This document shows positions 6,256-34,521 of a stretch of 63,842 bases of DNA, piece after piece. Each line of letters starts with the position of its first letter. Position 1 is the stretch's first letter. Under the pieces are notes generated by a model. It was not told the origin of the DNA, made no database searches, and saw only the letters and a program-made list of their open reading frames with translations. The DNA is taken from positions 1 to 63,842 of the forward strand of contig JAFSGH010000003.1 in assembly GCA_017440965.1 (NCBI GenBank), given 5' to 3'. A program made the position numbers and the translations under genes. Source of the stretch: Clostridia bacterium (GTDB lineage: Bacteria; Bacillota; Clostridia; Oscillospirales; Acutalibacteraceae).

Positions 6256-7698
6256 ATGAAATCCGCAATCAAAAGAGGGCTTACTCTTATTCTTACCGTT
6301 CTGCTTCTTCTGTCATCGGAAATTTTCTCATTTGCCGCCGTGACGGCAGATGCTGTGCCCGGTACGGTAAAGCTTGAATTGAATGAAACGGAAGAAGGTA
6401 TAACGCTTGATGTTTATCTTCTCAATATCTCCTCCTTTTCAAGCGCTGAAATTAATTTTAGCTATAATACAGAAGATCTTTACTATCAGGGATATGATCA
6501 TCATTTATCCGATCCCTCTGACAGCTATTACTGGTATTCTATCAGCAATTCCTCAGGGCACACATCTGCTGAAATTGAATTTTATGAAAGCACAGATCTT
6601 CATCTTTACACATATTTCTTTGCAAGACACTCCGAAATACTTTTTAAGGGTGCAGATTTCACTGTTGAAATAACGACCTTCTTTAATGAGACTGATTCTT
6701 ACACAAGCAGTGCAACCGTTTCTCTTCCGAAGGAAAAGATCGATCCCGAAAAATATCCGAACGCTCTTAAAAGCGGTGACATAGACGGTGACGGTGCCGT
6801 AGATTCGGTTGATGCAAGATATGCCCTTCGAATCGCAGTTGGTCTTGATAAATGCACCGCTCTCGTAAAGCAGTATGCGGATGTTGACAGTGACAAAGAG
6901 GTTTCCGCCTCCGATGCAAGAATTCTTCTCAGAACAGCGGTAGGCCTTGATAAAAAAGAGGATCTTCCTTATTTCCTGCCCCCTGAGACCTCTGCAGAGG
7001 ACAGCTGGTACTACTATCCCGATATAACATATCATACAGTTACAGAGGGTGAATCAAAGCCTGTAAATAATGTGCTTATAAGAAAAGGTACACCTACTAA
7101 ATGGACATCCTCAAACCCTGCCTGCGTTACCGTTGACGCCAACGGAAAAATTACCGCGCTGAAAAAGGGATTTTCCTGTGTCATACTGGAATGCGGCAAT
7201 GAAAAGTTCTACTTTGAAATTACTGTAAAGAGCACTCTTCAGGGAAAGATCGAGGCTCTTAAGGAAAAATATCCCGACGGCTATTACTGGAACAAGCACA
7301 CTCCCAGCACAAAATATCCCCTTGTTACGGAAACTCCCTGCTCCGACCATAAGGAAAAGAAATATGCCTACTGCAAGGGACAGTGCTCAGGCTTTGCAGA
7401 TATGCTGTATTCCGAGGTATTCCCCAATGCAAAGAGAACCAAGGGCGTTACATGGGAAACAATAAAGATCGGAGATTATATCCGTTTCAAGAGACACCAT
7501 TCCGTATTTGTTACAAATGTTGTGAACGAAGGTGACATAGTAGGCTATGATTACTGGAGCGGAGAAAATTACACAGCGTCCCATTCCTATATTGAGGTCG
7601 CACACTGCAACTGGTATTCCTGCTGTAATATCCAATGGGACTACTACTTCGATTCCGAATACGAAATAGACTCTTCATTAAGCTATACCGCATACTAA
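6256..7698 (+). CDS. Secreted dockerin protein with Ig-like and cysteine-peptidase-like domains
   Basis: 480 residues: signal peptide (1-28, ending FAAVTA); a beta-rich cohesin/Ig-like module (about 35-165); a type I dockerin with two calcium loops starting near 174 (GDIDGDGAVDSVDAR) and 208 (ADVDSDKEVSASDAR); a Big2-like domain (about 260-325); and a C-terminal CHAP/NlpC-like domain with Cys377 in GQCSGF and His414/His415 before SVFVTNV. It may be a cell-surface or secreted peptidoglycan/protein hydrolase anchored by cohesin-dockerin contact. No cohesin scaffold gene lies in the window. Preceded by AAGGAG-type site (AAGGAGATATC). Confidence 0.75.
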   Translation: MKSAIKRGLTLILTVLLLLSSEIFSFAAVTADAVPGTVKLELNETEEGITLDVYLLNISSFSSAEINFSYNTEDLYYQGYDHHLSDPSDSYYWYSISNSSGHTSAEIEFYESTDLHLYTYFFARHSEILFKGADFTVEITTFFNETDSYTSSATVSLPKEKIDPEKYPNALKSGDIDGDGAVDSVDARYALRIAVGLDKCTALVKQYADVDSDKEVSASDARILLRTAVGLDKKEDLPYFLPPETSAEDSWYYYPDITYHTVTEGESKPVNNVLIRKGTPTKWTSSNPACVTVDANGKITALKKGFSCVILECGNEKFYFEITVKSTLQGKIEALKEKYPDGYYWNKHTPSTKYPLVTETPCSDHKEKKYAYCKGQCSGFADMLYSEVFPNAKRTKGVTWETIKIGDYIRFKRHHSVFVTNVVNEGDIVGYDYWSGENYTASHSYIEVAHCNWYSCCNIQWDYYFDSEYEIDSSLSYTAY

Positions 7699-7701
7699 CC
7701 G

Positions 7702-7738
7702 AAAACCTCTTACTGCAACGGACAGTAAGAGGTTTTTA
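7702..7738 (+). terminator. Strong terminator after dockerin gene
   Basis: AAAACCTCTTACTG (7702-7715) pairs perfectly with CAGTAAGAGGTTTT (7723-7736), with A and T runs on the two sides so it could also work for leftward transcription. Confidence 0.9.
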
Positions 7739-7812
7739 TTAATATTATAGAACATTCCTGCATTTTAAACAATTTTGCTTATATCAAAGCTCCCGCAATA
7801 TCGGAAGACGGG

Positions 7813-7831
7813 AAAAGCAGTATGCTTTTTT
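7813..7831 (-). terminator. Short hairpin at the end of the PadR operon
   Basis: AAAAGC/GCTTTT pair around a 5-base loop immediately after the stop of the 170-residue gene. It is a weak stem; the leftward T run is short. A further stem CCCG/CGGG lies just beyond, so termination here is plausible but not certain. Confidence 0.4.
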
Positions 7832-8342
7832 ATCTGACATTACCCTTGGTATCACAAATTAGAGTGATGCTTCTGTTTATAGTTTTCAGCGGAACTCCCA
7901 GCTTATACTGCTGTACCGTAAACTCTGCCGTAGCTTTGTCATTGTCCTCGGTATTTTCAGATGATAAAAGCACCCAATCGGAATCGTAGATATCAATACC
8001 GAACTTACTGTCGGTGCAAATAGCCTTTTTATCCGAATAAACAAATTCAGCTTTAAGAGATGCCGTCCACAGCAGCTCATCCTCCGAGGAATAATAGCTT
8101 ACATACTTTGTTTTTGTCACTGTCCTCTGCCCTGTAAAAAACTCTATGAGCCTTCTGAAAAAATCCATCAGTCTTGAAAAGAAATCTGCTGAGCTGCTTT
8201 CTTTTACAAGGCATACGGTCTCTATATATGAGCCGTCCTCGAAAATTTCCTTTTCCGGCCTATGCTCTGCAAAAGAAAAGACAGGAAAGACAAAACCTAC
8301 CGCCAGAAGCAGACTTAATATTAATGACACTGTTTTTTTCAT
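7830..8342 (-). CDS. Exported protein of unknown function (PadR operon)
   Basis: 170 residues with a clear Sec signal (MKKTVSLILSLLLAVGF, cleavage after SFA near 25). The rest is polar with an amphipathic stretch near 55-70 (FFSRLMDFFRRLIEFF) and a beta-rich C-terminal half. I recognise no family. It overlaps the upstream HAAS-type gene by a few bases (ATGATATG region), so it is the third gene of the padR operon. It could be the exported target or sensor of this small regulatory unit. Confidence 0.65.
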   Translation of the reverse strand: MKKTVSLILSLLLAVGFVFPVFSFAEHRPEKEIFEDGSYIETVCLVKESSSADFFSRLMDFFRRLIEFFTGQRTVTKTKYVSYYSSEDELLWTASLKAEFVYSDKKAICTDSKFGIDIYDSDWVLLSSENTEDNDKATAEFTVQQYKLGVPLKTINRSITLICDTKGNVR

Positions 8343-8740
8343 ATCATCACTCCCGTGAAAAACCGATTATATACAAAAGCCGTGATCTCCGTAAAATAAC
8401 CGTGTGCCTCGGTATGGACATCTATAAAACTTATAATAACAAATATCAGATAAATCAGAACTATTGCCGCAAGTGCCGAAATCACAGTTTTCTTCAGAGA
8501 AAGCTTTTTTCTGATGCTTGTAATATCTGCTTCTGCCCTGAAGCTTTCACCGATAGCCTTTTCCGTACCGAAGATATCCTTTATATCCTCTATGGTGGCA
8601 TCCGGCTCGTCTTCAATATATTCTCTTATATTTCCCTTAAGCTCTTTGATAAAGCTGTCCTTTTCATTTTTGTCGCATAAAAGAACGGCAGCAATATTTT
8701 TATAGTAGCACTCAAGCTCCCTGTTAAGCTGCTTATTCAT
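8339..8740 (-). CDS. HAAS/DUF1700-type membrane protein
   Basis: 133 residues. The N-terminal 75 residues form the helical HAAS-like fold often paired with PadR regulators (LNRELECYYKNI, then EDIKDIFGTEKAIGESF). One transmembrane helix follows at about 85-110 (ALAAIVLIYLIFVIISF). I chose the ATG at 8740 because GGTGG lies 6 bases upstream; a GTG at 8743 would be only 3 bases from it. It overlaps the 3' end of padR. The family is thought to regulate membrane or sigma-factor functions together with PadR; the partner here may be the exported protein that follows. Confidence 0.75.
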   Translation of the reverse strand: MNKQLNRELECYYKNIAAVLLCDKNEKDSFIKELKGNIREYIEDEPDATIEDIKDIFGTEKAIGESFRAEADITSIRKKLSLKKTVISALAAIVLIYLIFVIISFIDVHTEAHGYFTEITAFVYNRFFTGVMI

Positions 8741-9071
8741 CACTTTCCACCGCCTTTAATATCAGATCTATCCCTTCGGAGATTCTGAAATATTCACCGA
8801 GAAGCTCCCGATAATACTCTTTCCCCTTATCCTCCAGATGATAGTATTTACGCATCCTTTTATTAATGATCTCATCATAGTCGGATATATATCCGTTTTC
8901 GGAAAAACGGTAAAAAACAGGATAAAGCGTACCGAGAGGCAAAGAGAATCTGCCGTCACTCATCTTTTCAACGGCCTTTACTATCTCGTAACCGTACATA
9001 TCCTTCTGTGAAAGCACAGCAAGAACAACAAGCTCTACCGTACCTCTCTTGAAATTATCTGCATTAGGCAA
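8733..9071 (-). CDS. PadR-family transcriptional regulator
   Basis: 112-residue winged-helix repressor. LSQKDMYGYEIVKAVEK and LPLGTLYPVFYRFSENGYI are the classic PadR N-terminal helix and recognition region. The start is a TTG (9071) behind GAGAGGAAG. It is first in an operon with the HAAS protein and an exported protein. The divergent promoter region (9072-9253) carries an inverted repeat and two facing promoters, so autoregulation and control of the Ig-like gene on the plus strand are likely. Confidence 0.9.
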   Translation of the reverse strand: MPNADNFKRGTVELVVLAVLSQKDMYGYEIVKAVEKMSDGRFSLPLGTLYPVFYRFSENGYISDYDEIINKRMRKYYHLEDKGKEYYRELLGEYFRISEGIDLILKAVESDE

Positions 9072-9100
9072 AAATATCTTCCTCTCTCGTTCATATTATA

Positions 9101-9129
9101 ATTGTACCATACAAATAACAGCAAGTCAA
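9101..9129 (-). promoter_or_regulatory. padR promoter
   Basis: Minus-strand TTGACT (9129-9124), 17-base spacer, TACAAT (9106-9101), about 30 bases before the padR start. Confidence 0.75.
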
Positions 9130-9149
9130 AATAATTTTTGCCGAACAAC

Positions 9150-9170
9150 ATATTTTGTCTCGCAAAATAT
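9150..9170. promoter_or_regulatory. Candidate PadR operator
   Basis: Perfect inverted repeat ATATTTTG (9150-9157), 5-base centre, CAAAATAT (9163-9170), placed between the divergent promoters and touching the plus-strand -35. Position suggests an operator; binding is inferred. Confidence 0.55.
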
Positions 9171-9173
9171 ATC

Positions 9174-9202
9174 TTGACACATAATATTTTAAATGGTACT
9201 AT
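9174..9202 (+). promoter_or_regulatory. Promoter of the Ig-like protein gene
   Basis: TTGACA (9174-9179), 17-base spacer, TACTAT (9197-9202). The -10 areas of both divergent promoters share TGGTAC, another possible regulator contact. Confidence 0.7.
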
Positions 9203-9253
9203 CAATTTGCAGAGGATATTTCCCCTGCAAATAACAATGAAAGGAAAATTAAT

Positions 9254-9670
9254 ATGAACATCAGCGAAATCTTCTCAAAGCTTATAGCATTATTTATGTT
9301 TGCACTCTCATTTATTGTTCCGGGATCTCCTGATAATGTTGAGATAAGCGTGAATGTAAATGACACACCCTCACAGTGTATTTCAGTCGAATGGAAAAAC
9401 AGCACCGGGAAAGCCATCACTGAGCCCCGTTTTTTTATGGAAAAAGAGGAAAACGGAGAATGGGAGCGCATCACCTTTTCTCAGGGCTTTGGCTTCAGGG
9501 AAATATATACCGAATATTATCCGACAGAAAAAGGTAGCTTCGGTATAGATTCCGAAATTGCCTTCGGTGAAAAGCTGTCTCCGGGCAATTACAGACTCAC
9601 ACTCTATTATGATGTGATCAACTGTACTCCGGACAAAGGTTCTTCAGCTATAGAATTTACGGTCAGCTGA
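9254..9670 (+). CDS. Exported Ig-like beta-sandwich protein
   Basis: 138 residues: signal/hydrophobic segment at 5-24, then one Ig-like beta-sandwich with alternating strands and the pattern FFMEKEENGEWERI ... LSPGNYRLTLYYDV, typical of bacterial Ig-like extracellular domains (Big_14-like). AAAGGAAAATTAAT precedes the ATG. Divergent from padR and probably under its control. It may be a ligand-binding or surface decoy module; function unknown. Confidence 0.65.
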   Translation: MNISEIFSKLIALFMFALSFIVPGSPDNVEISVNVNDTPSQCISVEWKNSTGKAITEPRFFMEKEENGEWERITFSQGFGFREIYTEYYPTEKGSFGIDSEIAFGEKLSPGNYRLTLYYDVINCTPDKGSSAIEFTVS

Positions 9671-9695
9671 GTTATCTATACATAAAACCTTTATT

Positions 9696-9733
9696 AAAAG
9701 GTCTGCTTCCGTAATATCGGAAACAGACCTTTT
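9696..9733. terminator. Bidirectional terminator
   Basis: AAAAGGTCTG-TTCCG pairs with CGGAA-CAGACCTTTT (9718-9733), with A/T runs on both sides, between two convergent genes. Confidence 0.85.
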
Positions 9734-9739
9734 ATCATA

Positions 9740-10390
9740 TCAGCCGAGTTCTACTATAAAAATAGCTTTCTTATCACTCCAGGCATTTACTTCATATTCC
9801 ACTTCGATTTTTTCTGCATCGGAAGGTACCTCAAAAAACACAGAGCCGCTGCCTTTTCTTCCCGAGGAAAGGGTAAGACTTAAGGTATCCTCAGTCCAGA
9901 TATATGCTTCAGCTGCATTTCCATCTGCATAACAGGTAAAATCATATGAGCTTATATATCTGTCCGTGCTTGCAGTATTGCTCACATCAAAACTGAGCTT
10001 TACAACAATATTTCCTTTCTGAGGTGCCGAATACCGGTTGTAGCCGGTCCACTTTTCTCCGCTGACATAGCTTATCTCAAGACCGTCATCATTAAGAACT
10101 GAACCGACACGGTAAACATTATCTTCTTTTTCTGCCGTGTTTTCCTCTGCAGTGTCTGAAGCATTTACCGAAACAGAAGTATCATTTCCTCCGGCAGAAG
10201 TCAGCTCATCTTCGCTGCCGCCGGCAGAAGAGCCGATTATTATGATAAGCACCGCTGCAATTATAAGCCAGAACCACCATTTTTTGAAGATCGGCTTTTT
10301 TGCTTTTTTCTCAGCATTAATATTTTCACCGCAGTTGGGACAATTATTAAAGCTGTCATCAAAGGAATTTCCGCATTTTTTACAAATCAT
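9740..10390 (-). CDS. Zinc-ribbon membrane-anchored protein
   Basis: 216 residues. N-terminal zinc ribbon with CKKC and CPNC pairs (residues 3-6 and 16-19), basic linker, one transmembrane helix (about 34-52, rich in Ile), a Ser/Thr/Glu linker, and an extracellular beta-sandwich (DUF4352-like, VGSVLNDDGLEISYV). I chose the ATG at 10390 because TTGGAGG lies ahead of it; a longer frame would run into the promoter. Divergent from an Xre regulator with shared operators, so probably repressed by it. Confidence 0.78.
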   Translation of the reverse strand: MICKKCGNSFDDSFNNCPNCGENINAEKKAKKPIFKKWWFWLIIAAVLIIIIGSSAGGSEDELTSAGGNDTSVSVNASDTAEENTAEKEDNVYRVGSVLNDDGLEISYVSGEKWTGYNRYSAPQKGNIVVKLSFDVSNTASTDRYISSYDFTCYADGNAAEAYIWTEDTLSLTLSSGRKGSGSVFFEVPSDAEKIEVEYEVNAWSDKKAIFIVELG

Positions 10391-10421
10391 TACAAAAACC
10401 TCCAAATTGTTTTTCATTGCC

Positions 10422-10450
10422 ATCATACTGCAAAATGCAGTAAAAGTCAA
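10422..10450 (-). promoter_or_regulatory. Promoter of the zinc-ribbon gene
   Basis: Minus-strand TTGACT (10450-10445), 17-base spacer, TATGAT (10427-10422). One palindrome of the Xre pair fills the spacer and part of the -10. Confidence 0.8.
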
Positions 10451-10468
10451 TACTGCAATTTGCAGTAT
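10426..10468. promoter_or_regulatory. Twin palindromic operators of the Xre regulator
   Basis: TACTGCA-AAA-TGCAGTA (10426-10442) and ATACTGCA-ATT-TGCAGTAT (10450-10468), centres 25 bases apart, on both sides of the -35. The arrangement would block both divergent genes and is typical of a small Xre/Cro-type autorepressor. Confidence 0.8.
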
Positions 10469-10492
10469 GATATATTTTTCTCGGTGATGATT

Positions 10493-10708
10493 ATGTACAA
10501 AAATATCCGTGATCTCAGAGAAGACAGTGATATAACTCAGGCACAGATGGCAAAAATGCTTAACTGCTCTCAGCAGGTATACAGTAATTATGAATTAGGT
10601 CAAAGAGACATTCCCACAAGCATCCTCATAAAGCTTGCTGAGATTCATAATGTATCGGTAGATTATATTTTAGGACTGACAACAAAAAAAGATAGGCTTC
10701 CGGAATAA
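10493..10708 (+). CDS. Xre-family helix-turn-helix regulator
   Basis: 71 residues, a single HTH_3 domain: RDLREDSDITQAQMAKML, then QQVYSNYELGQRDIP. I start at the ATG at 10493 because longer frames begin inside the second palindrome. CGGTGA serves as a modest ribosome site. It should bind the twin TACTGCA palindromes and control itself and the divergent zinc-ribbon membrane protein. Ends in a hairpin terminator. Confidence 0.88.
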   Translation: MYKNIRDLREDSDITQAQMAKMLNCSQQVYSNYELGQRDIPTSILIKLAEIHNVSVDYILGLTTKKDRLPE

Positions 10709-13344: not shown

Positions 13345-14100
13345 TTACTGTATTATCTCTCCGAAAAAGATCTCTTTCTCCGTGCCGTCAGTCAATATTG
13401 CTCTTACGGCACCGTTTTCCGTAATATCGCAAACTTTCCCCTCGATTACACCGTTCTGAGTCTTATATTTTATATTTTTTCCTATAGAATACGATAATCT
13501 GCGTACATTATCAAGGCTTTTTTTGCTTACACCGAAAAGCTCCTCTTTTTCATAGATATATTCATCAAGCTTTTGTGTTATCCTTGAAAAAAGAGCCGTT
13601 TTGTCGGGCACAGCTATCCCCTCTGCCGCAAATGAAGTCATTTTATCAAGAAGCTCCTCGGGAATATCCTTTTTCTCGGTGCTGAGATTTATACCTATTC
13701 CTGCAACCACAGTAAGACTGCCCGCGCTTACAAGCTCACATAGTATTCCGCCGAGCTTTTTTTGGTTAAGATATATATCATTGGGCCATTTAATTTCCGT
13801 TGCCGTTCCCGTAAGCTCACTTATTGCTTCACTGACCGCAAGTCCTGCAAGAAGCGTGAGAAAGGGGATGTTTTTCTCGCTTCCCAGAAGAGGATAGGAA
13901 ACAGAAAAATAAAGCCCGCCGCGGGGTGAATAGAAATCTCTGCCCAGCCGTCCTCTGCCCTTCGTCTGAAAGTCGGCAAGAACAGCAGCAAAAACAGGCT
14001 CCTCGGAGCTTTTTATCATTTCCTTAAGAACGGCATTTGTAGACTCTGTCGCATTTAATGAAACAAGCCTTCTCGCACGCTCTGTGAACTTCTCATACAT
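13345..14100 (-). CDS. birA: Biotin-[acetyl-CoA-carboxylase] ligase
   Basis: 251 residues; attaches biotin to carrier domains via biotinyl-AMP. Motifs: LNATESTNAVL, GRGRLGRDFYSPRGGLYFS (ATP/biotin loop) and KWPNDIYL with the catalytic Lys, then KLGGILCE. It lacks the N-terminal HTH of E. coli BirA, so it is a pure enzyme rather than a repressor. No strong Shine-Dalgarno. It heads the minus-strand operon reaching trpS. Confidence 0.93.
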   Translation of the reverse strand: MYEKFTERARRLVSLNATESTNAVLKEMIKSSEEPVFAAVLADFQTKGRGRLGRDFYSPRGGLYFSVSYPLLGSEKNIPFLTLLAGLAVSEAISELTGTATEIKWPNDIYLNQKKLGGILCELVSAGSLTVVAGIGINLSTEKKDIPEELLDKMTSFAAEGIAVPDKTALFSRITQKLDEYIYEKEELFGVSKKSLDNVRRLSYSIGKNIKYKTQNGVIEGKVCDITENGAVRAILTDGTEKEIFFGEIIQ

Positions 14101-14165
14101 TTTATCTGCCCTTAATATAAATTTTACAGTCTTAAAATCCTGACAGAAGCACCGTAATAATTCAT

Positions 14166-14186
14166 TTTACGGCAAAAAACCGTAAA
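14166..14186. other. Hairpin upstream of birA
   Basis: TTTACGG (14166-14172), 7-base A-rich loop, CCGTAAA (14180-14186), 66 bases upstream of the birA start. It may be a leader hairpin or regulator site; no test possible here. Confidence 0.4.
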
Positions 14187-14248
14187 TTAAAATACTGTTC
14201 CGATACAAGCTGTACCGAAACTGGATAAAAATATTTCACAATTAACTT

Positions 14249-14286
14249 AAAAGGGACAGTCTTTGAAAAGTACTGTCCCTTTTTTT
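14249..14286. terminator. Bidirectional terminator
   Basis: AAAAGGGACAGT (14249-14260) pairs with ACTGTCCCTTTT (14272-14283) with flanking A and T runs. It ends the YdbC-like gene on the minus strand. Confidence 0.85.
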
Positions 14287-14319
14287 GTTTTTTCTGCGGC
14301 GGAACACATCCGCACTCTT

Positions 14320-14538
14320 TTATTCTTCGTTTGCGAGAAGCTCTTTAAGTGCCTTGATATCGTTTGCAGAAAGAGTGATTCCCTTACCCATCTTTTCGTG
14401 CTCGGGGCCCCAGTCACGGATATCATACTTAGGCTCTTTACCGTTCCAGCTGATAAGATTGAGCTCCTTTGCCCAACCGCCTGAGCCTTCAGAGATAATA
14501 CCGATGTGCTTAACGATCTCATATGTAAATTCGGGCAT
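14320..14538 (-). CDS. YdbC/PC4-family DNA-binding protein
   Basis: 72 residues (start at the ATG at 14538, behind GAAAGGAG). FTYEIVKHIGIISEG, GWAKELNLISWNG and YDIRDWGPEHEKMGKGITL match the YdbC/PC4-like family, small beta-proteins that bind single-stranded DNA. Monocistronic, with its own promoter (TTGATT 14613-14608, 17 bases, TATTAT 14590-14585) and terminator. High codon quality and strong signals suggest abundant expression. Confidence 0.9.
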   Translation of the reverse strand: MPEFTYEIVKHIGIISEGSGGWAKELNLISWNGKEPKYDIRDWGPEHEKMGKGITLSANDIKALKELLANEE

Positions 14539-14584
14539 TGTAAAGTCTCCTTTCAATATAATTATTATATTTATACATATTTAT

Positions 14585-14613
14585 ATAATATATAGGAAAA
14601 TTAAAAAAATCAA
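14585..14613 (-). promoter_or_regulatory. Promoter of the YdbC-like gene
   Basis: TTGATT (14613-14608), 17-base spacer, TATTAT (14590-14585) on the minus strand, in a very AT-rich stretch. Confidence 0.6.
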
Positions 14614-14771
14614 GTCCTTTTTTAAAATTTTTGTATAATTTGCGGTTTTTTCGGAAATTTCATAATAAAATCTTAAGAAAAACACAAACATGGCTTAATT
14701 CATCTGACGGATATATGATGCTATAATAAGGTCACACAAAAAAGTACATTATTTTTCAAGAGGTGACAAGC

Positions 14772-15545
14772 TTGAATAAAAGAAAAAGAAATATATTGAT
14801 ATCAATACTTATGGTGCTGACTGTAATTATTCTTATAATAATTGACAACACCGTTTTCAGTGAGCCGAAATACCCGATAGCGGATGAGCTTATCCGTCCC
14901 TTTGCCAAAAGCCATGATATCAGAATGAAGGAATATCCCGACGAGCTTAAGGCTATGCTTGAAAAGAATCCCGAAACGGAGGACTTCGTGCTGAATTACC
15001 CGTTGAAGAAGGATGCACAAGGTGATTTTTCCATGGAGGAATATAAAAATCTCTCTGAAGTACCTCATTTTATTCAATGGGATGAACGCTGGGGATATGA
15101 GGAATATGCAGGAAGCATTATGGGAATTGCAGGCTGCGGCCCCGTCTGCCTTTCTATGGTCAGTATGTACCTTCTTAATGATACCTCCCTTGATCCGTTA
15201 TATATTGCAAGGTTTGCGGAAAAAGAAAGCTATGCCTCAAAAAATAACGGAACAAAGTGGCTTCTTATGAGTGAGGGCGCAGGAAAGCTCGGGCTTGAAA
15301 GCAAGGAGCTTCCGTTGCATAAGGAGACAATGATCAACGCACTTGATAACGGCTGTCCTATAATATGTATAATGGGTGCAGGCGATTTTACATCTACGGG
15401 ACATTACATAGTACTGACTTCTTATGATGAAAACGGCTTTTCAGTGCTTGATCCCAATTCAAAAGCAAGAAGCTCGCAGAAATGGACATATGAAAGAATT
15501 GAAAGTCAGATAAGAAATATATGGTCCTTTTCGGTCGCAAATTGA
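14772..15545 (+). CDS. C39-like cysteine peptidase, membrane-anchored
   Basis: About 257 residues if started at the TTG (14772), which sits 5 bases after AGAGGTGA; a GTG at 14763 overlaps that site. One N-terminal transmembrane helix (ILISILMVLTVIILIIID). Peptidase_C39_2 domain: IQWDERWGYEEY, catalytic Cys in AGCGPVCLSM, and His in GHYIVLTSYDENG with a following Asp (VLDPNS). Extracellular papain-like peptidase or amidase; substrate unknown. No bacteriocin or ABC exporter is adjacent, so it is not a leader peptidase by context. Confidence 0.8.
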   Translation: MNKRKRNILISILMVLTVIILIIIDNTVFSEPKYPIADELIRPFAKSHDIRMKEYPDELKAMLEKNPETEDFVLNYPLKKDAQGDFSMEEYKNLSEVPHFIQWDERWGYEEYAGSIMGIAGCGPVCLSMVSMYLLNDTSLDPLYIARFAEKESYASKNNGTKWLLMSEGAGKLGLESKELPLHKETMINALDNGCPIICIMGAGDFTSTGHYIVLTSYDENGFSVLDPNSKARSSQKWTYERIESQIRNIWSFSVAN

Positions 15546-15554
15546 TATATCCGT

Positions 15555-15580
15555 CAGCCCCGTCTTAAAAAACGGGGCTG
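15555..15580 (+). terminator. Hairpin after the C39-like gene
   Basis: CAGCCCCGT (15555-15563) with ACGGGGCTG (15572-15580). The T tail is poor, so efficiency is uncertain. Confidence 0.6.
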
Positions 15581-15589
15581 TTACAATTT

Positions 15590-15616
15590 AATAATAATAA
15601 GAAGAAGAAGAAGAAT
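15590..15616. repeat. AAT/AAG trinucleotide microsatellite
   Basis: A run of AAT then AAG triplets upstream of the TIR gene promoter. Length variation here could change spacing but lies outside the promoter itself. Confidence 0.6.
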
Positions 15617-15635
15617 ATATGCATATGACAGTTTG

Positions 15636-15664
15636 TTGACACTCTTTATATGATATGCTAAAAT
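15636..15664 (+). promoter_or_regulatory. Promoter of the TIR-RCC1 gene
   Basis: Consensus TTGACA (15636-15641), 17-base spacer, TAAAAT (15659-15664). It implies a leader of about 140 bases before the ATG at 15814. Confidence 0.7.
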
Positions 15665-15813
15665 ATGATGCAGTACTGCAATAATACTGATGTTAAAGCA
15701 CCATTTCACTTTATGTTCACATAATAAAAACATATTAAACACTGAGGACCCTTCACACCTTATCATAACAAAGCACCTGCTATCGGAACGGTCTTCAACA
15801 CAGGGAGCATTAT

Positions 15814-18627
15814 ATGGGATATGCATTTATAAGCTACAGCACAAAAAACCGTGAATCTGCAGATTTTATACGGTATTACTTTAACAAAAACGGTATAGAA
15901 GTATGGATGGCACCTTATAACATTCCTGCAGGAAGCAAGTATGCAGCGGTAATCACACAGGCTATCAGAGATTGCAGCTGCTTTGTCCTGCTTTTAAGCA
16001 ATGCTTCTCAGGAGTCTGTTGCCGTTGACAGTGAGGTCGAGCTTGCCGCTCTGACCTTCAAAAAGCCCTTTATCACCGTTGAGCTTGAAAAGGTAACACT
16101 CAATGATGCGTTCACCTTCTATATTCATAATAAGCAGATCATACCGCTTTACAGCATTAATGAAAGCTCATATGAATTACAGCAGATACTGAGTGCTGTC
16201 AGAGGCTATACCGCAAAAGAAACAGAGGCTGCTGCTTTCAATAATGATAATATCAAGGCCGTAATACCTGCCGAAAACAAAAAGACAGCAGCTTTCAATA
16301 ATGACAGTATCAAGCCGGTAATCCCTGCCGATAACAAAAATACTGCAGGGACAACGGAAAGCTGGGCAGAAGCAAAAAGACTCAATATGATCGCAAGATA
16401 TCTTCTTAACAGATCCGGATACGGTCTTAAAACAGACGGTACAATATTCTTAAATAACTCCGCCGGGGAGCTTGCGGCCTTAACAGGTTGGAATGATATT
16501 TCAGCTGTTTATCCGGGCAAAAACTTTACGGTAGGACTTAAAAATGACGGTACGGTCGTTGCGACGGGCCGTTCAAATTTCTGGCAGAAGCCTCTTCATG
16601 AATTCAGCGGCATAAAGGCGGCAAGTGTAGGCGAGGAGCACATACTGCTGCTTTCCGAAAACGGTACCGTAACGGGCCTCGGAAGAAACAAGGAGGGGCA
16701 GTGCGATACCTCAGAATGGCGCAATATAAAGAAGGCAAAATGCGGCTTTTTCCATTCTGTAGGTCTCAGAGAAAACGGTACGGTCGTTGCCTGCGGCTGG
16801 AACGACTGCGGACAGTGCAATGTATCTGACTGGACAGGAATCGTTGAAATTCAGGTAGGAAGAGAGCACACCTTCGGCTTCAGGGCAGACGGTTCTGTTC
16901 TTGTTGCGGGAAATAACAGACTGGATCACGCAGAAATAAGAAGCTGGAAGAATATATCCGAATTCTTTTTTTCAACACATCTTGCAATCGGAATAAAAAC
17001 AGACGGTACGATGTGTTATACCGGCACGCTCAGAGAACAGCTGCAGGAGGCTGTGCGCTGGCGTGATATTGTTCAGCTTGCCTCTTCTCCGAATCACTGT
17101 GTGGGACTTACATCCCACGGAACAGTTCTTTTCGCAGGTGATCCCTCTTCAGGCAAATGTCAGGTAAGCGGCTGGACCGATATTATTGCCGTATTTGCAG
17201 GTGAAGGCTTTACTCTCGGACTGAGAAAGGACGGAACGATTGCCGTTGCCTGCGATGACGGAATAAAGAATAAAGAAATGGAGAGCTGGAAGCTCTTTGA
17301 CGATATTTATAATATTGATAACGAAAGGAAAGAAAAATCCGCAATCAAAAACGCTCAGCTGGCTGAAAAAAACAAGCCCGCCAAGGGCAGATATACTGTC
17401 GATGAGCTGATGAAAATCCGTGAGATCAATGAATTGGTTACCGATAAGCTTTTTACTGATATGAGCAGAACCATTGCAATAGACAATAACCATAAGCTGT
17501 ATTTTGCAGGCAAGCCGTATGAAGATTGCGATATCAACGATCATCTTTATGATAACGAAGCCGTTTCAATCGGTTCAGGGTATCTCGTTCTGCTGAAAAC
17601 CGACGGAACAGTTTCTGCCGTAGGCTCAAACATTTACAATCAGACTGAGGTTTATGACTGGAGAAATATTACTGCAATCAGTGCAGCATGCCGTCATACA
17701 CTGGGACTGAGAGCTGACGGCACTGTAGCTGTTGCAGGCAAAAACAAGGACCGCTACGGAAATTACATCGAAGAATGTGCTGTTGGCAGCTGGGATAATG
17801 TCAAAGCCATATATGCCACGGAATTCGCCTCATACGGACTCAGAAATGACGGGACCGTTTGTTTTACAACCTACTGCACAGAATATAATATGCAGGAAAT
17901 TGAAAAATGGAGAGACATCAAAAAAATTATTGCTCCCAGAATGGCAAGCATTGTAGTCGGAGTAAAAAATGACGGCTCTGTTGTTGCGGCAGGAGGTAAT
18001 TACAGCGGTATCCGTGAAGTTACGGAACAGAAGAATGTTTATGATATATCGACCGTTGGCACTCATATAGCCGGCATCACATATGACGGACATGCTTTTG
18101 CCTACGGAGAAAACCACTACGGCGAATGCGATGTTTCCGACTGGACCGATATCGTTCAGATTTCGGCAGGTCATTACCATACTATAGGACTTAAGGCAGA
18201 CGGAACGGTGGTTGCAGCCGGAAATAACGAAAACGGAATGTGCGATGTTTCACATTGGCGCGATATCGTCGGAGTATATACTGCTTATATGCATACAATA
18301 GGACTTAAGGCAGACGGTACGATCGTTACGGCAGGAGATAACCAATACGGACAGCTGGATGTGTCAGACTGGAAGCTTTTCAACAGCATCAAGGAAGAGG
18401 AAACCAAGCTTCAGCTTGCAAAGGAGATCTTTAACGATCTTTTCGGTGCCAACCCGATTCCTGCTGTCCCCGAAAAAAAACCTGCCCCTGAAAAGCCCGT
18501 GCAGGACAACAAGAAGATGCTTCAGGAGGAAAGACGCAGTAAGGGACTTTGCCCATATTGCGGCGGTACCTTCAAGGGACTTTTTACAAAAAAATGTTCA
18601 TCCTGCGGTACAGAAAAGGATTATTGA
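15814..18627 (+). CDS. TIR-domain / double RCC1 propeller / zinc-ribbon protein
   Basis: 937 residues, no signal or membrane segment, so cytoplasmic. Residues 1-135 are a TIR domain (YAFISYSTKN; GIEVWMAP; VLLLSNASQES) with Glu74 in DSEVELA at the place of the NADase catalytic glutamate. A linker carries a 19-residue tandem duplication (about 141-178). Two arrays of about eight RCC1-like repeats follow (about 195-490 and 552-852), each unit built on GLKxDGTVVAxG and a short DW/SW-x-I segment. The end is a zinc ribbon (CPYC 913-916, CSSC 928-931). TIR NADases act in bacterial immunity and signalling; RCC1 propellers bind ligands or proteins. No partner gene is adjacent. Its function is inferred only. 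Confidence 0.85.
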   Translation: MGYAFISYSTKNRESADFIRYYFNKNGIEVWMAPYNIPAGSKYAAVITQAIRDCSCFVLLLSNASQESVAVDSEVELAALTFKKPFITVELEKVTLNDAFTFYIHNKQIIPLYSINESSYELQQILSAVRGYTAKETEAAAFNNDNIKAVIPAENKKTAAFNNDSIKPVIPADNKNTAGTTESWAEAKRLNMIARYLLNRSGYGLKTDGTIFLNNSAGELAALTGWNDISAVYPGKNFTVGLKNDGTVVATGRSNFWQKPLHEFSGIKAASVGEEHILLLSENGTVTGLGRNKEGQCDTSEWRNIKKAKCGFFHSVGLRENGTVVACGWNDCGQCNVSDWTGIVEIQVGREHTFGFRADGSVLVAGNNRLDHAEIRSWKNISEFFFSTHLAIGIKTDGTMCYTGTLREQLQEAVRWRDIVQLASSPNHCVGLTSHGTVLFAGDPSSGKCQVSGWTDIIAVFAGEGFTLGLRKDGTIAVACDDGIKNKEMESWKLFDDIYNIDNERKEKSAIKNAQLAEKNKPAKGRYTVDELMKIREINELVTDKLFTDMSRTIAIDNNHKLYFAGKPYEDCDINDHLYDNEAVSIGSGYLVLLKTDGTVSAVGSNIYNQTEVYDWRNITAISAACRHTLGLRADGTVAVAGKNKDRYGNYIEECAVGSWDNVKAIYATEFASYGLRNDGTVCFTTYCTEYNMQEIEKWRDIKKIIAPRMASIVVGVKNDGSVVAAGGNYSGIREVTEQKNVYDISTVGTHIAGITYDGHAFAYGENHYGECDVSDWTDIVQISAGHYHTIGLKADGTVVAAGNNENGMCDVSHWRDIVGVYTAYMHTIGLKADGTIVTAGDNQYGQLDVSDWKLFNSIKEEETKLQLAKEIFNDLFGANPIPAVPEKKPAPEKPVQDNKKMLQEERRSKGLCPYCGGTFKGLFTKKCSSCGTEKDY
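16231..16344 (+). repeat. 57-base tandem duplication inside the TIR gene linker
   Basis: Two copies of a unit encoding AAFNNDxIKxVIPAxNKxTA, 57 bases each (from 16231 and 16288), in frame, with a few base differences. It lengthens the linker between the TIR domain and the first propeller. Confidence 0.8.
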
Positions 18628-18636
18628 TATTATCCG

Positions 18637-18678
18637 AAAAGGATCTGTAAAAACTCTTGTTTTTTGCAGATCCTTTTT
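18637..18678 (+). terminator. Terminator after the TIR-RCC1 gene
   Basis: AAAAGGATCTG (18637-18647) pairs with CAGATCCTTTT (18667-18677), then more T. Confidence 0.85.
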
Positions 18679-18700
18679 TCTGCTCGGACAGTTATTTTTC

Positions 18701-18729
18701 TTGTAAATCGGCTTCATATTATGTATAAT
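18701..18729 (+). promoter_or_regulatory. Promoter of the GH27-xylBA-GH29 operon
   Basis: TTGTAA (18701-18706), 17-base spacer, perfect TATAAT (18724-18729), about 30 bases before the GH27 start. I see no obvious catabolite (cre) or XylR operator. Confidence 0.55.
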
Positions 18730-18758
18730 ATATATACTTATATAATAGAGGTGTTGTT

Positions 18759-20051
18759 ATGAGGAATAAAAATGCTTGTGCACCTACTCCTCCGAGAGGC
18801 TTTAACTCCTGGGACTGCTACGGTGCGGCAATAAATGAAGAACAACTTATGGCAAATGCAAGATATCAGGCGGAGCATCTTAAGGATTTCGGCTTTGAAT
18901 ATGTAGTATGTGACATTCAGTGGTATGAGCCTACGGCAGACTCATATGCTTATCATAATTTTACGGAGCTTTGCTACGACGAATACTCCCGTGTTATTCC
19001 TGCAGTAAACCGCTTCCCCTCCTCTGCAAACGGTGTGGGCTTTAAGAAAATTGCAGACGATATACACGCTATGGGACTTAAATTCGGTATACATATCTTA
19101 AGGGGTATTCCCCGTCAGTGCGTACATCTCAACACTCCCACAAAAACACCCGGCATAACATCAAGAGATATTGCAGAGCAGTATTCCATATGTCCCTGGA
19201 ATACCGATATGTACGGTGTCAATGCCGATGCTGAAGGTGCACAGGAATACTATGATTCAATTTTTGAATTATATGCCTCATGGGGCGTGGATTTTGTTAA
19301 GGTGGATGATATCGCAAACACCGAATTCAAGCCTCACGATCCCTATTCCGCAAGAAAAGAAATTGAAATGATAAAAAAAGCAATAGATAACTGCGGCAGA
19401 GATATGGTCTTAAGCCTCTCCCCCGGACCTGCTCCCTTATGGGAAGCAGAGCATCTCAAAGAATATGCCAATATGTGGAGAATGAGCGGTGATTTCTGGG
19501 ACAGAAGCGACGCACTTGACCATATGTTTGAATTATGCTTTAACTGGTATCCTCATATAGCTGAGGGCTGTTATCCCGACTGCGATATGCTGCCCTTAGG
19601 TATTCTTCAGCTTACGGAGACCGATCCGAAATACAAGGCAAGAAAAACAAGGTTTACCGAAAAAGAGCAGTATATGGTTATGAGTCTCTGGTGTATGTTC
19701 CGTTCTCCTCTTATGTTCGGCGGTGAGATGACTATGATGGATGACTTCACATATTCTCTTATAACCAACAAAGAGCTTCTGGACATAAACGCTTATTCAT
19801 CAGAAAACAGACCTCTTATTTGGAATAAGGAAATTGCCGTATGGACCTGCAAGGACAAAAACGGTAAAAATGTCTTCGGATTTTTCAATCTTACGGACAC
19901 CGAAAAGGAAATAGTCCTTGACAGCAGCCTTGCTGAGGTCTCCTCCTTCGGAGAGCTTTATGATGTATGGACAAAAGAAAAAATAACTGCCGATAAGAAG
20001 CTCAGTGTAAAATTCAGCGGCAGAGACTCAAAAGTTTTTGTTTCGGAATAA
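18759..20051 (+). CDS. GH27 family glycosidase (alpha-galactosidase or beta-L-arabinopyranosidase)
   Basis: 430 residues, no signal peptide, so it acts inside the cell. Motifs of GH27: TPPRGFNSWDCYG at the start, then FVKVDD with Asp183 as likely nucleophile, and SGDFWD with the likely acid/base Asp. The C-terminal beta-domain is present (VFGFFNLTDTEKEI). GH27 members cleave alpha-galactosides or beta-L-arabinopyranosides; being co-transcribed with xylose genes makes a pentose substrate plausible, but the sequence does not decide. First gene of the operon; the xylulokinase follows after 11 bases. Confidence 0.85.
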   Translation: MRNKNACAPTPPRGFNSWDCYGAAINEEQLMANARYQAEHLKDFGFEYVVCDIQWYEPTADSYAYHNFTELCYDEYSRVIPAVNRFPSSANGVGFKKIADDIHAMGLKFGIHILRGIPRQCVHLNTPTKTPGITSRDIAEQYSICPWNTDMYGVNADAEGAQEYYDSIFELYASWGVDFVKVDDIANTEFKPHDPYSARKEIEMIKKAIDNCGRDMVLSLSPGPAPLWEAEHLKEYANMWRMSGDFWDRSDALDHMFELCFNWYPHIAEGCYPDCDMLPLGILQLTETDPKYKARKTRFTEKEQYMVMSLWCMFRSPLMFGGEMTMMDDFTYSLITNKELLDINAYSSENRPLIWNKEIAVWTCKDKNGKNVFGFFNLTDTEKEIVLDSSLAEVSSFGELYDVWTKEKITADKKLSVKFSGRDSKVFVSE

Positions 20052-34492: not shown

Positions 34493-34521
34493 TTGATTAT
34501 TCAATTCTTATATGTTATTAT
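34493..34521 (+). promoter_or_regulatory. dnaA promoter
   Basis: TTGATT (34493-34498), 17-base spacer, TATTAT (34516-34521), 55 bases before the dnaA start. The 300-base gap 34277-34576 otherwise holds the hom promoter and the repeat; I see no DnaA-box cluster in it. Confidence 0.55.

What the first reader, a model, noticed from the sequence alone, without database searches (positions are those of the whole stretch)
15814..18627. TIR domain joined to two RCC1-like propellers and a zinc ribbon
Sequence shows a TIR domain with Glu74 in the position of the NADase glutamate, two arrays of about eight RCC1-type repeats, and a C-terminal CPYC/CSSC ribbon. TIR NADases are established in bacterial immunity (for example Thoeris and short pAgo systems), and RCC1 propellers in ligand or protein binding. 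This exact combination is not one I know as a described system. Inference: a single-protein sensor/effector, with the propellers sensing an invader or metabolite and the TIR consuming NAD+. No neighbour looks like a defence gene.
Basis: partly seen in the sequence, partly recalled or inferred. Interest (0 to 1): 0.85.

Follow-up and report, generated by a model that had tools for sequence, protein, structure and literature searches.

The report
TIR protein with two RCC1 propellers
A bacterium carries a lone gene that joins a probable NAD-cutting TIR domain to two ring-shaped RCC1 propellers and a small zinc ribbon; some relatives keep a TIR and carry other repeat modules instead, which looks like an immune receptor with an interchangeable sensor, though no activity has been tested.

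Summary
In detail: one intact 937-aa ORF holds a TIR_2 domain (E 4e-15) with Glu74 at the catalytic position (Glu in 76 of 78 aligned TIRs), two homologous arrays of 8 RCC1 repeats, and a C-terminal CPYC/CSSC ribbon. It is a solo gene, whole in 1 of 26 genomes of its genus; three sister genomes have its flanking genes side by side without it. The architecture is not one of a kind: 21 other ORFs in fetched loci join TIR to RCC1, 9 with the same ribbon. RCC1-bearing TIRs are not one clade (p-AU 1.5e-50): this TIR is 72% identical to one fused to LRRs, and close kin carry MORN, TPR, Sel1, kinase or a probable STAND NTPase. In one relative, adjacent genes are 89% identical over 890 nt (ZnR-TPR-TIR), then continue into RCC1 or MORN. 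Best reading: a single-chain cytosolic TIR receptor of the bacterial immune kind with an exchangeable repeat sensor. NADase activity, ligand and phage defence are inferred. Against: neighbourhoods are not defence islands, and other members sit beside SPFH or PrsW proteins, so stress signalling remains open. No structure could be predicted (tool off).

The parts
15814..18627 (+). TIR-RCC1-RCC1-ribbon gene, 937 aa
15814..16218 (+). N-terminal TIR domain (res 1-135), catalytic-position Glu74 at 16033-16035
   Evidence: Pfam TIR_2; alignment A1; Glu in 76 of 78 rows
16219..16362 (+). linker (res 136-183)
   Evidence: no Pfam match
16363..17313 (+). RCC1 array 1, 8 repeat anchors (res 184-500)
17314..17448 (+). 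inter-propeller linker, probably helical (res 501-545)
   Evidence: sequence; helical by inference
17449..18387 (+). RCC1 array 2, 8 repeat anchors (res 546-858), 35% identical to array 1
18388..18531 (+). charged linker before the ribbon (res 859-906)
   Evidence: sequence
18532..18624 (+). C-terminal zinc ribbon (Cys 913, 916, 928, 931) ending KDY
   Evidence: alignment A2; 21 further ORFs with this tail in fetched loci
15636..15664 (+). promoter-like TTGACA-17-TAAAAT with TG before the second hexamer
   Evidence: consensus match only, 11 of 12
18637..18677 (+). inverted repeat after the stop codon, terminator-like by eye (not listed by the terminator scan)
   Evidence: reading as terminator is inference
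15525..18693 (.). stretch without aligned counterpart at the same site in G309, G300 and G301 (right edge 18694 in G300, 18717 in G309 and G301)

Best explanation
A cytosolic, single-chain receptor of the bacterial TIR immune kind. The two RCC1 propellers, with the C-terminal ribbon, are the recognition and/or assembly half; binding a trigger brings the N-terminal TIRs together, which then cleave NAD+ and stop the cell. Shown: domain content, the conserved Glu under purifying selection, no membrane segment by hydropathy, presence/absence at a fixed site, and exchange of the repeat half for other repeats in relatives while a TIR is kept. Inferred: that the TIR is an active NADase, that the propellers sense rather than merely scaffold, and that the trigger is a phage or other invader.
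For: TIR_2 above cut-off and Glu74; the three PDB sequences found by the TIR profile are Cat1, a CRISPR-associated TIR filament (E 2.8e-6), a TIR-STING fusion and a TPR protein, with the Glu aligned in all three. TIR kin fused to LRR_5, MORN, Sel1, TPR and kinase, and to probable STAND NTPases: NB-ARC and nSTAND3 matches are below Pfam's cut-offs (20.0 against 23.5 and 24.4 against 27.2 bits) but P-loop sequences are present. RCC1-bearing TIRs not one clade, p-AU 1.5e-50, 22 rows against 43. Whole gene in 1 of 26 genus genomes; site empty in 3 of 3 sister genomes that keep both flanks adjacent. Tandem genes in L215 are 89% identical over the first 890 nt (ZnR-TPR-TIR) with no blastn match after, RCC1 becoming MORN. 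PADLOC's matches are TIR-bearing models: SAVED_TIR, ThsB and Aga_TIR. Max 19-residue hydropathy 1.48.
Against: Neighbours are not defence genes: 42 of 46 other window ORFs and 86 of 190 neighbour ORFs of 40 related loci give only scattered PADLOC matches. The locus is near the replication origin (dnaA-like ORF at 34493; gene names by recall), not a mobile island. Position 70, Trp in 57 of 78 rows, is Ala here. Pattern scans found no relative of the TIR in viral contigs. The STAND matches of kin are weak (above). No structure, no assay; in one study many gut strains' TIRs showed no NADase activity in vitro (PMC9092222, table passage).
Confidence: 0.5

Rival explanations
1. A stress-signalling scaffold or nucleotide-signal generator of the envelope: the TIR-repeat proteins monitor the membrane or protein quality together with SPFH/Band-7 or PrsW proteins, and immunity is not the main role.
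For: Of 86 neighbour proteins scanned, 7 are Band_7_1 and 4 PrsW, the two most frequent families; of the 190 neighbours, 6 related small proteins, membrane-like by eye, stand by the Band_7_1 genes. Zinc ribbons occur in several of the Band_7_1 proteins.
Against: The gene in the window has no such neighbour; its genome has only two short Band_7_1 matches (E 1.4e-4, 8-92 of 211 positions, just over the cut-off with their neighbours); presence in 1 of 26 genus genomes is odd for a core stress pathway. Membrane-linked neighbours also fit immune systems.
Confidence: 0.25
2. A non-enzymatic adaptor: the TIR only assembles complexes and the propellers hold partners; no NAD+ is cut.
For: Ala instead of Trp at position 70; non-catalytic TIRs are common elsewhere (general knowledge).
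Against: Glu74 kept in 8 of 8 of the subfamily, purifying selection, nearest solved relatives are mostly effector TIRs.
Confidence: 0.15
3. A secreted or host-directed effector acting on animal immune signalling.
For: TIR proteins of some pathogens act this way (general knowledge).
Against: No hydrophobic segment fit for a signal or membrane anchor; kin joined to kinase and probable STAND NTPases.
Confidence: 0.04

Closest known systems
ZnR-TPR-TIR-RCC1 proteins of the same family and order (unnamed; e.g. L053, L221, L228)
   Same: TIR, RCC1 arrays (by extent two arrays in some), same C-terminal ribbon
   Different: They begin with a zinc ribbon and have another TIR lineage; ours starts with a TIR of the LRR/MORN-associated lineage
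TIR proteins with LRR_5, MORN, TPR or Sel1 repeats (L042, L046, L045, L047)
   Same: TIR 51-72% identical, at or near the N-terminus
   Different: Other repeat modules; of the eight TIRs in A1 only ours is joined to RCC1
TIR-STAND/NLR-like defence proteins (probable: L201 with NB-ARC match, L202 with nSTAND3 match)
   Same: Same TIR subfamily (L201) or near it (L202)
   Different: Ours has no NTPase module; their NTPase matches are below Pfam cut-offs though P-loops are present
Cat1, TIR-STING, TIR-SAVED (CBASS), Thoeris ThsB, pAgo-associated TIR
   Same: TIR with catalytic Glu
   Different: Their sensing domains or partners are absent here
Dictyostelium TirE (PMC13142454, passages seen)
   Same: The only protein in print that I found joining TIR domains and RCC1 repeats
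   Different: Eukaryotic, two tandem diverged TIRs; relation to the bacterial proteins untested
BLIP-II / RCC1 propellers
   Same: Best PDB match over the propeller part by sequence (E 1.5e-7)
   Different: BLIP-II is a secreted single propeller that binds beta-lactamases (recall)

Membership tests
TIR domain (PF13676) | match above curated cut-off | tested here: met
   56.8 bits against 28
Enzymatic TIR NADase | catalytic glutamate | tested here: met
   Glu74 aligned with a Glu of Cat1 and TIR-STING; 76 of 78 rows
Enzymatic TIR NADase | NAD+ pocket in structure and NADase activity | not testable with these tools
   structure prediction not accepted; no assay
RCC1/BLIP-II propeller | RCC1 repeats in arrays of about seven | tested here: met
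   RCC1_2 E 1.7e-58; 8 anchors per array; blade number unresolved
Thoeris ThsB | ThsB_TIR above cut-off and a ThsA partner | tested here: not met
   17.1 bits against 21.2; no ThsA among PADLOC matches of 42 window ORFs
CBASS TIR-SAVED | SAVED domain and a cyclase neighbour | tested here: not met
   PADLOC match covers TIR only, 14-89 of 404 profile positions; no SAVED in the Pfam scan
short pAgo TIR-APAZ | APAZ domain and pAgo partner | tested here: not met
   Aga_TIR matches cover the TIR end only (reading Aga as pAgo-associated is recall); no such partner in window matches
TIR-STAND (NLR-like) | STAND NTPase module | tested here: not met
   no NTPase family in the Pfam scan
ZnR-TPR-TIR-RCC1-ribbon proteins of the order | RCC1 arrays plus C-terminal KDY ribbon | tested here: met
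ZnR-TPR-TIR-RCC1-ribbon proteins of the order | N-terminal zinc ribbon and TPR, and their TIR lineage | tested here: not met
   protein starts with TIR; TIR in another clade
Anti-phage defence system | protection against phage | not testable with these tools
   no experiment possible; neighbourhood evidence negative

The most novel reading that the evidence does not exclude
These bacteria (Clostridia-like by gene content, an inference) hold an innate receptor repertoire built on a plug-and-socket plan: a conserved TIR effector half is recombined with interchangeable recognition halves (RCC1, MORN, LRR, Sel1, TPR, probable STAND), partly inside tandem arrays, so that new specificities arise by cassette swapping. 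The window's gene is a solitary hybrid that put a TIR of the LRR/MORN lineage onto a two-propeller, ribbon-tailed sensor.
Probability: 0.35. Interest if true: 0.8.

Novelty: new variant of a known kind. Interest (0 to 1): 0.58.

Why it matters
If right, RCC1 propellers are a new class of sensor for bacterial TIR effectors, and these bacteria keep and reshuffle a family of such receptors much as plants do with NLRs. The tandem genes with nearly identical TIR halves and different repeat halves give a direct test of whether the repeat half sets specificity.

Tried and rejected
Thoeris, CBASS and short-pAgo membership were tested and dropped. A mobile-element explanation found little: pattern scans of viral contigs gave no relative of the whole protein or of the TIR and one contig with the ribbon on LRR proteins; tblastn found 20 plasmid and 7 phage records, all under 60% identity, and the rows shown (15 of 20, and 7 of 7) start at residue 165 or later, so without the TIR. 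The named-genome scan, which rests on six exact peptide patterns, gave one distant RCC1 protein (28%). Rfam over 14000-20000 gave one sub-threshold match at 14209. In the PDB a phycobilisome linker (CpcN, E 2.9e-8) scored above BLIP-II by summed weak matches over residues 521-578; I take it as spurious. Blade-to-blade identity within P0001 is low (mean 0.21), so recent blade amplification, as in L048 (0.76), does not apply to it. Literature: searches in the open library listed no paper that I recognised as describing a bacterial TIR-RCC1 protein; subscription papers are mostly not held.

Rows dropped: in the second tree three ORFs with long or doubtful TIR rows (L233_9324, L203_754, L081_1325) were left out, 69 rows becoming 65. 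For the neighbour scan I gave the nearest 90 of a list of 134 (itself cut from 190 by size and total length) less four that are TIR ORFs, 86 in all; a few TIR ORFs remained among them. In the window scan ORFs under 140 aa were left out (4 of 46). Of the 21 tail places one (G289:C109) is a helicase, a false match by its sequence, and one (G052:C9) is a 23-residue frame that I did not look into further.

Full report
What is there. The ORF at 15814-18627 encodes 937 residues. Pfam finds TIR_2 at residues 5-96 (56.8 bits, cut-off 28) and RCC1_2 with E 1.7e-58; WD40_RLD and ThsB_TIR also match but below their cut-offs. NCBIfam has no match up to E 0.01. The C-terminal CPYC/CSSC ribbon gives no Pfam match but is part of a conserved tail ending in KDY. 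Two arrays of eight repeats, 35% identical to each other over 281 residues, are joined by a 45-residue linker. Hydropathy shows no membrane segment.

The TIR. Glu74 is in the catalytic position: invariant in the eight TIRs of A1, Glu in 76 of 78 TIR rows, and aligned with a Glu of Cat1, a TIR-STING fusion and a TPR-repeat protein, the only three PDB sequences that the subfamily profile finds at E 0.001. The residue four before it, Trp in 57 of 78 rows, is Ala here. Against the closest TIR (L042, 72% identical) pN is 0.17 and pS 0.89, so the domain is under purifying selection although synonymous sites are saturated. Activity is not shown.

A recurrent design with exchanged parts. In 87 loci fetched (chosen mostly by similarity to this protein, so the counts are not frequencies) 21 other ORFs hold both TIR and RCC1, 9 of them with the same ribbon tail. 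Twenty of the 21 fall in one TIR lineage (30 rows); 19 of the 21 have a CxxC-CxxC pair in their first 60 residues. In a TIR tree of 65 rows the 22 RCC1-bearing TIRs, ours included, do not form one clade (p-AU 1.5e-50; the label changes at least 11 times). The window's TIR groups with one fused to LRR_5 and one fused to MORN (support 98/98, 96/98). Its subfamily is also joined to TPR, Sel1, kinase, a signal-vWA-membrane-TIR protein (vWA by eye), and, in L201, to a stretch that matches NB-ARC below Pfam's cut-off but holds a P-loop; somewhat further off are LRR_4 proteins and L202 with a sub-cut-off nSTAND3 match and a P-loop. So this gene is a hybrid of two designs.

Direct sight of a swap. In L215 (G175, a 109-kb contig) three ZnR-TPR-TIR genes stand in a row. 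The first two are 89% identical in DNA over 890 nt and have no blastn match at 1e-5 after that; the first continues into RCC1 repeats, the second into MORN repeats, and the third ends in the ribbon tail without RCC1. In L053 (another genus) two neighbouring genes are 82-97% identical over the first 360 residues, 58% in the next window, 0-47% through the RCC1 part, and 67% at the tail. Two further neighbour pairs (L221, L219) show the same trend more weakly. Of 53 loci with a TIR, 18 have two or more TIR ORFs, one of the 18 (L253) being a near-copy of another (L046) in the same genome.

The ribbon tail. A search of 398 family genomes with the tail found 21 places in 18 genomes. Sorted by what else the ORF holds: 4 TIR+RCC1 (the window's gene included), 4 TIR without RCC1, 2 RCC1 without TIR (one cut by a contig end), 6 with BspA-type LRRs (4 by Pfam; L242 and L244 by eye), and 5 others: three short proteins without a domain that I recognised, one 23-residue frame and one helicase that is a false match. 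The tail thus goes mainly with this kind of repeat protein. Its function is unknown; a shared docking site is my guess.

Distribution and site. The whole gene is in 1 of 26 genomes of the genus; nine others match parts only, one of them (G316) with a TIR 45% identical. In 300 family genomes 56 match some part at 1e-10, in 394 order genomes 25 at 1e-28, and no other genome gave the same N-terminal-TIR, double-RCC1 protein in the rows shown (the list is cut). In G309, G300 and G301 the peptidase gene (14763-15545) and the melibiase gene (18759-20051) are adjacent, with 67, 229 and 324 bases between the aligned flanks, and the 3.2 kb in between has no counterpart. In G076 the flanks are rearranged and in G305 they are on different contigs. 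Whether this is gain or loss cannot be told. Base composition of the gene is that of its neighbours. The TIR subfamily is also patchy in another genus (2 of 24 genomes of g4 at 1e-40).

Evidence that does not help the defence reading. The window is a core region with ORFs that look like dnaA, gyrB, gyrA and parB (names by recall). PADLOC matches among 42 of its 46 other ORFs are scattered and look like housekeeping homologies, which is inference since the tally does not name members. Of 190 neighbours in 40 related loci I scanned 86: each PADLOC family that matched at 1e-8 matched one protein (mad6, PD-T4-6, PDC-S66, RT-Protease_XI, C3a189); Pfam's most frequent were Band_7_1 (7) and PrsW (4). 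Seven loci pair the ZnR-TIR genes with an SPFH protein, six of these (L221 apart) or their kin with a small protein that looks membrane-bound (L214 shows the same order by eye). The own genome has two short Band_7_1 matches. This keeps an envelope-stress role open.

Comparison with print. In the open library only a preprint on Dictyostelium (PMC13142454, passages seen) mentions TIR with RCC1 in one protein (TirE). A survey says that prokaryotic TIR groups hold diverse architectures (PMC7075850, passages); gut TIR domains have been assayed, with no activity found for many strains and a Glu requirement used for prediction (PMC9092222, passages); conflict-system work describes repeats, propellers and Band-7 domains as superstructure parts (PMC7159879, passages). 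RCC1/BLIP-II is the third most populated group of highly repetitive propellers (PMC9218822, passages). Searches listed no paper that I recognised as describing a bacterial TIR-RCC1 protein.

Verdict. A real, intact gene; new variant of a known kind (TIR effector plus repeat sensor). I give 0.5 to the immune-receptor NADase reading, 0.25 to stress signalling, 0.15 to a non-enzymatic adaptor. The most interesting part lies outside the window: relatives that keep the TIR half and exchange the repeat half.

Noticed in passing
L215:641-6407 (G175:C44): Three tandem ZnR-TPR-TIR genes; the first two share an 89% identical first 890 nt and then differ completely (RCC1 against MORN).
   Followed up: yes
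L044:7361-9001 (G292:C9): Protein with signal-like start, vWA-like part (by eye), one strong membrane segment at residue 365 and a C-terminal TIR of the same subfamily: a Toll-receptor-like topology.
   Followed up: partly
L202:5377-6498 and 6861-10649 (G718:C34); L201:6421-9525 (G107:C31): Kinase-TIR gene beside a 1263-aa TIR gene with a weak nSTAND3 match; L201 is a TIR protein with a weak NB-ARC match. Both long ones hold a P-loop.
   Followed up: partly
L049, L212, L219, L220, L221, L230, L231: ZnR-TIR-RCC1 genes near an SPFH/Band_7_1 protein; a ~235-aa related protein, membrane-like by eye, in six of the seven, and a trypsin-like protein in L221. Looks like a conserved multi-gene unit.
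   Followed up: partly
L070, L071, L207, L208: TIR-LRR genes beside PrsW-like intramembrane proteases (assignment to loci by similarity and eye; the Pfam tally counts 4).
   Followed up: no
L216, L217, L218, L242, L244, L254: BspA-type LRR proteins carry the same C-terminal KDY ribbon; L254 is a viral-collection contig with two of them.
   Followed up: partly
L241 (MT840057.1): Record called Bacteriophage sp. (4.5 kb, unverified) encodes an RCC1 protein 40% identical to the propeller; may be bacterial DNA.
   Followed up: no
L079:9170-10459, L080:171-1031, L081:1325-2347 (own genome): Three other TIR proteins in the same genome, placed in other TIR lineages.
   Followed up: partly
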